From Cinnamomum chago (taxonomy: Eukaryota > Streptophyta > Magnoliopsida > Laurales > Lauraceae), in NCBI GenBank assembly GCA_038049695.1, contig CP142452.1:107455001-107519000 (forward strand): a stretch of 64,000 nucleotides of DNA, read 5' to 3'. Shown here in pieces: positions 34,024-34,257 of the stretch. The position numbers and the translations under genes are program-made. Within the stretch, counting starts at the first letter, position 1, and every line of letters starts with the position of its first letter. The notes beneath the pieces were generated by a model. It saw nothing but the letters and a program-made list of their open reading frames with translations. It did not search any database and was not told the DNA's origin.

Positions 34024-34257
34024 TCAACCAGTGTTCCTCATCCCTGCCGCTATCCCATTGATGGTTATGAGCAATGCATCTCTAAGCTTATGATTATCCT
34101 CATCGCTCCTCAACCTCCTTAGTATCTCCACCTATAACATGTTGATTGGATTAAGATAGGGTAGCCTATTCTCAATCAAACGTCTCAGCCTTCGGTTGTT
34201 CTCTGAAAGTTTCTCTGAATGATTGCTGAGCATGATTTTCCAAGGAAGTGAATACTT
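34024..34257 (-). pseudogene. Captured C-terminal fragment of bacterial-type phosphoenolpyruvate carboxylase
   Basis: The minus strand reads, toward its stop at 34026-34024, SEKLSENNRRLRRLIENRL, then PYLNPINML, a stop codon, VEILRRLRSDEDNHKLRD and ALLITINGIAAGMRNTG. The last 17 residues and the preceding ENRLPYLNP.NML.VEIL.RLR pattern are the C-terminus of plant bacterial-type PEP carboxylase (PPC4 class). The final RNTG is its hallmark, since plant-type isoforms end QNTG. The enzyme carboxylates phosphoenolpyruvate in the cytosol. Here only about 70 codons remain, with one TAG where the family has Gln. It lies antisense to the transposase genes and well inside the element's ends, so it is most simply a host fragment picked up by the transposon. 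Confidence 0.82.

What the first reader, a model, noticed from the sequence alone, without database searches (positions are those of the whole stretch)
34024..34257. CACTA transposon carrying the C-terminus of bacterial-type PEP carboxylase
Seen: an antisense frame ending ALLITINGIAAGMRNTG then stop, preceded by ENRLPYLNPINML, a TAG and VEILRRLRSDEDNHKLRD, 7.2-12.2 kb inside the CACTA ends. Known: RNTG is the C-terminal tetrapeptide of plant bacterial-type PEP carboxylase, while plant-type isoforms end QNTG. Inference: a host gene fragment was captured by the transposon. Because it lies antisense to the element's genes, read-through could make antisense RNA to the host carboxylase gene.
Basis: partly seen in the sequence, partly recalled or inferred. 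Interest (0 to 1): 0.75.

Follow-up and report, generated by a model that had tools for sequence, protein, structure and literature searches.

The report
Plant enzyme gene scrap inside transposon
A worn-out CACTA transposon in a plant genome carries a backwards-facing scrap of about 190 bases that matches the end of a plant enzyme gene, which looks like an ordinary case of a transposon picking up a piece of a host gene.

Summary
On the minus strand, 34027-34215 encodes the last 63 residues of plant bacterial-type PEP carboxylase (PPC4 class), followed by a stop codon at 34024-34026; one TAG (34132-34134) stands where 120 of 120 listed relatives have Gln. Pfam PF00311 gives E=4.6e-17; a C-terminal profile scores 129.6 bits, against at most 2.9 in the decoys. 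tblastn of 120 relatives finds no other part of the enzyme in the window, and the homology breaks off between 34216 and 34236.

The scrap lies inside a CACTA element, 31270-46448 (15,179 bp), with 13-bp perfect terminal repeats, TAA on both flanks, and subterminal repeats concentrated at the two ends.

Best reading: capture of a host gene fragment. Passages of PMC8978399 report captured fragments in the same position, 5' of the transposase ORF, in Chenopodium. The proposed antisense effect on the host gene is untested; the host genome search did not complete. New member of a known kind, low interest.

The parts
31267..31269 (.). target site duplication, left copy (TAA)
   Evidence: sequence
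31270..31282 (+). 5' terminal inverted repeat CACTACAACAAAA of the CACTA element
   Evidence: 13 of 13 bases identical to the other end, 23 of the first 28
31286..32024 (.). 5' subterminal repeats (GCGTTGG / CCGACGC type units)
   Evidence: repeat families D5, D11, D13; motif counts
34024..34026 (-). stop codon that ends the PEPC fragment, at the place where PPC4 proteins end
34027..34215 (-). fragment of bacterial-type PEP carboxylase (PPC4), last 63 codons
   Evidence: PF00311 4.6e-17
34132..34134 (-). premature TAG where 120 of 120 listed PPC4 proteins have Gln
34216..34236 (-). zone in which the PEPC homology breaks off (exact edge not settled)
   Evidence: tblastn reaches 34236 only with a gap; the invariant His is out of register from 34216 on
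35667..38285 (+). tnp2 transposase gene remnant: transposase-associated domain, Transposase_21, start of DUF4218; frame changes near 35756, 36790 and 37810, and in-frame stops. The ATG at 35667 is read from the sequence and not confirmed
38368..39324 (+). C-terminal part of the same gene (DUF4216)
45830..46435 (.). 3' subterminal repeats (approximate limits)
   Evidence: repeat family D7; motif counts; sequence
46436..46448 (-). 3' terminal inverted repeat
46449..46451 (.). target site duplication, right copy (TAA)
   Evidence: sequence

Best explanation
A CACTA (En/Spm) DNA transposon in a plant genome picked up a short stretch of a bacterial-type PEP carboxylase gene (the end of the coding region, its stop codon and possibly some DNA beyond it) and carries it, antisense, in the non-coding region between its 5' subterminal repeats and its transposase gene. 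Shown here: the fragment's identity, its truncation, its place between CACTA ends with a target duplication, its orientation, and the broken transposase. Inferred: that the donor was the host's own gene; that capture went by one of the published routes (re-excision of closely spaced tandem CACTA copies, or faulty repair); that the fragment has no protein function now; and that the element could move only with transposase supplied in trans.
For: PF00311 at 4.6e-17. 832 of 2599 candidates at E<=0.001; all named proteins among the 120 listed are plant, 75-87% identity. tblastn of the 120: 127 pieces at E<=0.1, all at this one place. Profiles along the whole PPC4 alignment: nothing outside the fragment below E=0.55. 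CACTA ends, TAA on both flanks, and 50 of 55 subterminal motif matches of the window in the bins at the two ends. Transposase domains between them on the plus strand. Same position as captured fragments in Chenopodium CACTA elements, 754-1342 bp upstream of the transposase-associated domain (passages of PMC8978399); here about 1452 bp upstream of the likely ATG.
Against: No donor locus, second copy or empty site could be compared (eight busy answers of the genome search). The edge may be a splice site rather than a break inside an exon: CTCAG ending at 34226 looks like a splice acceptor, and the evidence on the last exon is mixed. Only one copy of the element was seen, so capture before insertion is inferred.
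Confidence: 0.85

Rival explanations
1. Another mobile element (for example a Helitron, Pack-MULE or retrotransposon) captured the PEPC piece and later inserted into the CACTA element, which only inherited it.
For: The 5' region between the subterminal repeats and the transposase gene is 3.6 kb long and mostly unidentified. A 60-bp repeat, 93% alike, occurs at 35364 and 42801 within the element.
Against: No convincing terminal repeats enclose the fragment: of 38 inverted-repeat pairs in 31270-36000 the 25 longest were listed, and those that enclose it are AT-rich stretches of 15-25 bases at 76-94%. Pfam scans of all six frames of 32101-35700 show no other transposon protein. Helitron ends were not searched for.
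Confidence: 0.1
2. The piece is kept because it does something: transcripts or small RNAs from the element, antisense to PPC4, act on the host gene or shield the element from silencing.
For: Orientation: a transcript from the 5' end towards the transposase would run antisense through the fragment. Small RNAs from captured gene pieces acting on donor genes are described for maize Helitrons, Pack-MULEs and Sirevirus (passage of PMC13317346).
Against: No expression or small-RNA data here. One copy, 189 coding bases, with a premature stop in a decayed element. DNA identity to the host gene unknown.
Confidence: 0.04
3. Chance resemblance, plant-type PEPC, or bacterial contamination.
For: None found.
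Against: Decoys score at most 2.9 bits against 129.6. E. coli PEPC matches at 1.5e-6 and maize C4 PEPC (ending QNTG) at 8.5e-4, best over its last 22 residues, against 1e-29 or so for plant PPC4 in a far larger database.
Confidence: 0.01

Closest known systems
CACTA elements of Chenopodium with captured gene fragments (PMC8978399; abstract start and passages seen)
   Same: Host gene fragments in the 5' region upstream of the transposase ORF, outside the coding sequence; large element with subterminal repeats.
   Different: Other host and other captured genes (neprosin, AP2).
Tgm-Express1 of soybean (PMC1947982; abstract and Discussion read)
   Same: CACTA ends enclosing host gene fragments.
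   Different: 5.7 kb, five gene fragments, transcripts shown; here one fragment was identified, a transposase gene is present and no transcripts are known.
CACTA-mediated gene capture on wheat chromosome 3B (PMC4290129; passages seen)
   Same: 140 capture events reported, mostly gene fragments.
   Different: Other host and families; 19 captured genes there are transcribed and under selection, not shown here.
Pack-CACTA elements (PMC8903248 and PMC13317346; passages seen)
   Same: CACTA ends, 3-bp duplication, piece of coding DNA inside.
   Different: Pack-TYPE elements are classed by having no transposase match; this element has one, so it is not filed there.

Membership tests
CACTA (En/Spm) DNA transposon | Terminal inverted repeats starting CACTA | tested here: met
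   13 of 13 bases identical, 23 of 28
CACTA (En/Spm) DNA transposon | 3-bp target site duplication | tested here: met
   TAA on both sides
CACTA (En/Spm) DNA transposon | Subterminal repeats at both ends | tested here: met
   50 of 55 motif matches of the window in the four 500-bp bins at the two ends
CACTA (En/Spm) DNA transposon | tnp2-type transposase (PF02992) gene | tested here: met
   PF02992, PF13963, PF13960, PF13952; broken by frame changes and stops
Bacterial-type PEP carboxylase (PPC4) | C-terminal RNTG and PPC4-like C-terminus | tested here: met
   RNTG as a mark of this class in PMC8435749 (passage)
Bacterial-type PEP carboxylase (PPC4) | Whole enzyme, with catalytic parts | tested here: not met
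   only the last 63 codons are present in the window
Pack-CACTA | No transposase match inside the element | tested here: not met
   criterion from a passage of PMC8903248
Transduplicated host gene fragment | Parent gene present elsewhere in the same genome | not testable with these tools
   The genome search unanswered
Transduplicated host gene fragment | Fragment truncated and enclosed by the transposon ends | tested here: met
Nested Pack-MULE or other TIR element | Terminal inverted repeats enclosing the fragment inside the CACTA | tested here: inconclusive
   no convincing pair among the 25 listed of 38

The most novel reading that the evidence does not exclude
The CACTA family keeps the PPC4 piece, antisense, in a transcribed 5' leader, so that element transcripts or small RNAs tune the host's bacterial-type PEP carboxylase, or likeness to a host gene shields the element from silencing.
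Probability: 0.04. Interest if true: 0.6.

Novelty: new member of a known kind. Interest (0 to 1): 0.22.

Why it matters
It adds one clean case to the known habit of plant CACTA elements of carrying host gene pieces 5' of their transposase gene. If several copies of this element in the host share the piece, the order of capture and spread could be read from them. By itself it does not change what is known of PEP carboxylase or of CACTA elements.

Tried and rejected
Host genome: the genome search (where 'own') gave a busy error, so no donor locus, empty site or second copy was compared.

More captured pieces: Pfam scans of all six frames of 32101-35700 gave only PEPC, and those of 41500-46000 nothing, at E up to 0.1. 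Ten nearer pieces at E up to 5 gave two weak matches (0.075 and 0.022, both under the family cut-offs), rejected as chance. One frame upstream of the fragment against solved structures gave nothing.

Exon edge: is 34216-34236 an exon boundary? Of the 107 short proteins, 40 match the preceding 64 residues of PPC4 at E of 2.2e-4 or better. Several of these are 110-132 residues long and start at an inner Met, as if the last exon were about 130 codons, which would put the break inside the exon. Against that, others start at a Val or Met right before the GH of SGHEKL (P0122, P0127, P0131, P0136-P0138), and CTCAG at 34226 resembles a splice acceptor. I could not tell whether the contigs are genomic. 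Left open.

Genomic or cDNA capture: not told apart. No A-run of 8 or more lies within 780 bases after the stop; one of 10 lies at 786, and an AATAAA at 275.

Donor lineage: 63 residues are too few. The seven best of the 120 listed, at 58 of 64 residues, are from poppy family, Proteales, Magnolia and Typha. Transposase hits lead with unnamed sources and Camellia at 66-67%. Host not named.

Print: PMC searches listed no report of PPC4 in a CACTA element; the two papers listed were not read, and the library holds open-licence papers only.

The odds did not change.

Full report
Observation. Pfam places residues 13-77 on positions 849-919 of 919 of PF00311, PEP carboxylase, E=4.6e-17. A profile of the last 66 residues of 100 of the 120 listed plant sequences scores 129.6 bits on the window, -0.5 on the reversed window and at most 2.9 in 20 mononucleotide shuffles.

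Which enzyme. A database search scored on the fragment but open to full-length proteins gave 832 of 2599 candidates at E<=0.001. Of these the best 120 were listed; those that bear a name are plant proteins, many called PPC4, at 75-87% identity. The RNTG ending is given as the mark of bacterial-type plant PEPC in PMC8435749 (passage). E. coli PEPC matches at 1.5e-6 and maize C4 PEPC at 8.5e-4, best over its last 22 residues and ending QNTG.

Extent. tblastn of the 120 listed proteins against the window gave 127 pieces at E<=0.1, all at this one place, the best from 34027 to 34236. Overlapping 80-column profiles along the PPC4 alignment (100 of 120 sequences) found nothing outside the fragment below E=0.55; two weak hits (0.014, 0.015) from other parts of the enzyme fall on the fragment itself. 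The last 63 codons (34027-34215) align without gaps. Seven differ from the commonest residue: six are residues that some of the other 120 have, and one is a TAG at 34132-34134 where 120 of 120 have Gln. Just upstream the invariant His (120 of 120) is out of register. The piece is about 6% of the protein.

Container. CACTACAACAAAA begins at 31270 and, on the other strand, at 46448. The first 13 bp are identical, 23 of the first 28 match, and TAA flanks both sides. Of 55 matches to a set of subterminal motifs in the window, 50 lie in the four 500-bp bins at these two ends. Between the ends on the plus strand lie a transposase-associated domain, tnp2 in two frames, DUF4218 and DUF4216. Against published tnp2 proteins the two main parts show 57-67% identity to P0228 and P0234, with frame changes near 36790 and 37810, a further one inferred near 35756, and stops inside the frame. 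The element is 15,179 bp, complete at its ends and unlikely to be autonomous. The fragment lies 2757 bp from the 5' end and 12.2 kb from the 3' end, antisense, about 1452 bp upstream of the likely transposase ATG (35667, read, not confirmed; one search was set one base off).

What it is. A host-type gene fragment carried by a CACTA element. Passages describe fragments captured in Chenopodium CACTA elements in the 5' region upstream of ORF 1, 754-1342 bp before the transposase-associated domain (PMC8978399). Others describe five fragments in Tgm-Express1 (PMC1947982, abstract and Discussion), 140 capture events on wheat chromosome 3B (PMC4290129, passages), and capture by re-excision of tandem CACTA copies (PMC13317346 and PMC8903248, passages). 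This case agrees with those where it could be tested, except that the transposase match inside it keeps it out of the Pack-CACTA class.

How it works. Shown: identity, truncation, enclosure, orientation, broken transposase. Inferred: capture by one of the published routes, and movement, if any, with transposase supplied in trans. The premature stop could be a C-to-T change of a CAG codon, a CHG site, which would fit decay of methylated transposon DNA; that is one event and an inference. The antisense idea is possible by orientation but has no evidence here; small RNAs from captured pieces acting on donor genes are described for maize Helitrons, Pack-MULEs and Sirevirus (PMC13317346, passage).

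Limits and results against. The host genome could not be searched (eight busy answers), so the captured interval, its DNA identity to the donor and the copy number remain open. Whether the edge lies inside an exon or at a splice site is unsettled. Only one copy of the element was seen. Helitron ends were not searched for, so a nested-element origin is not excluded.

Verdict. A real observation, rightly read as capture, of an ordinary and published kind; interest 0.22.

Noticed in passing
16455-18208 and 22117-23870: A 1.75-kb direct repeat, 99.8% identical, 5.66 kb apart, with a zinc-knuckle ORF (20604-22028, minus) between the copies: looks like the two LTRs of a young LTR retrotransposon.
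   Followed up: partly
6350-6554: A nearly perfect 205-bp foldback (95-nt arms, 100% complementary, 17 nt apart) with CACTACACC ends and TTA on both flanks: looks like a miniature CACTA-type element.
   Followed up: partly
25391-26113: A tandem array with a unit of mostly 8 bases inside a 370-residue open frame (25003-26115, plus) that has no Pfam match.
   Followed up: no
35364-35423 and 42801-42860: A 60-bp repeat, 93% alike, on both sides of the transposase region of the CACTA element, the first copy followed by an A-run.
   Followed up: no
26607-28423 minus: BED zinc finger ORF, possibly a hAT-type transposase remnant; the type is recalled, not tested.
   Followed up: no
P0001 (Artemisia annua PPC4, 1140 aa): The annotated protein carries its C-terminal part twice in tandem, the first copy ending ARMRNTG: a partial gene duplication or an annotation error.
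   Followed up: no
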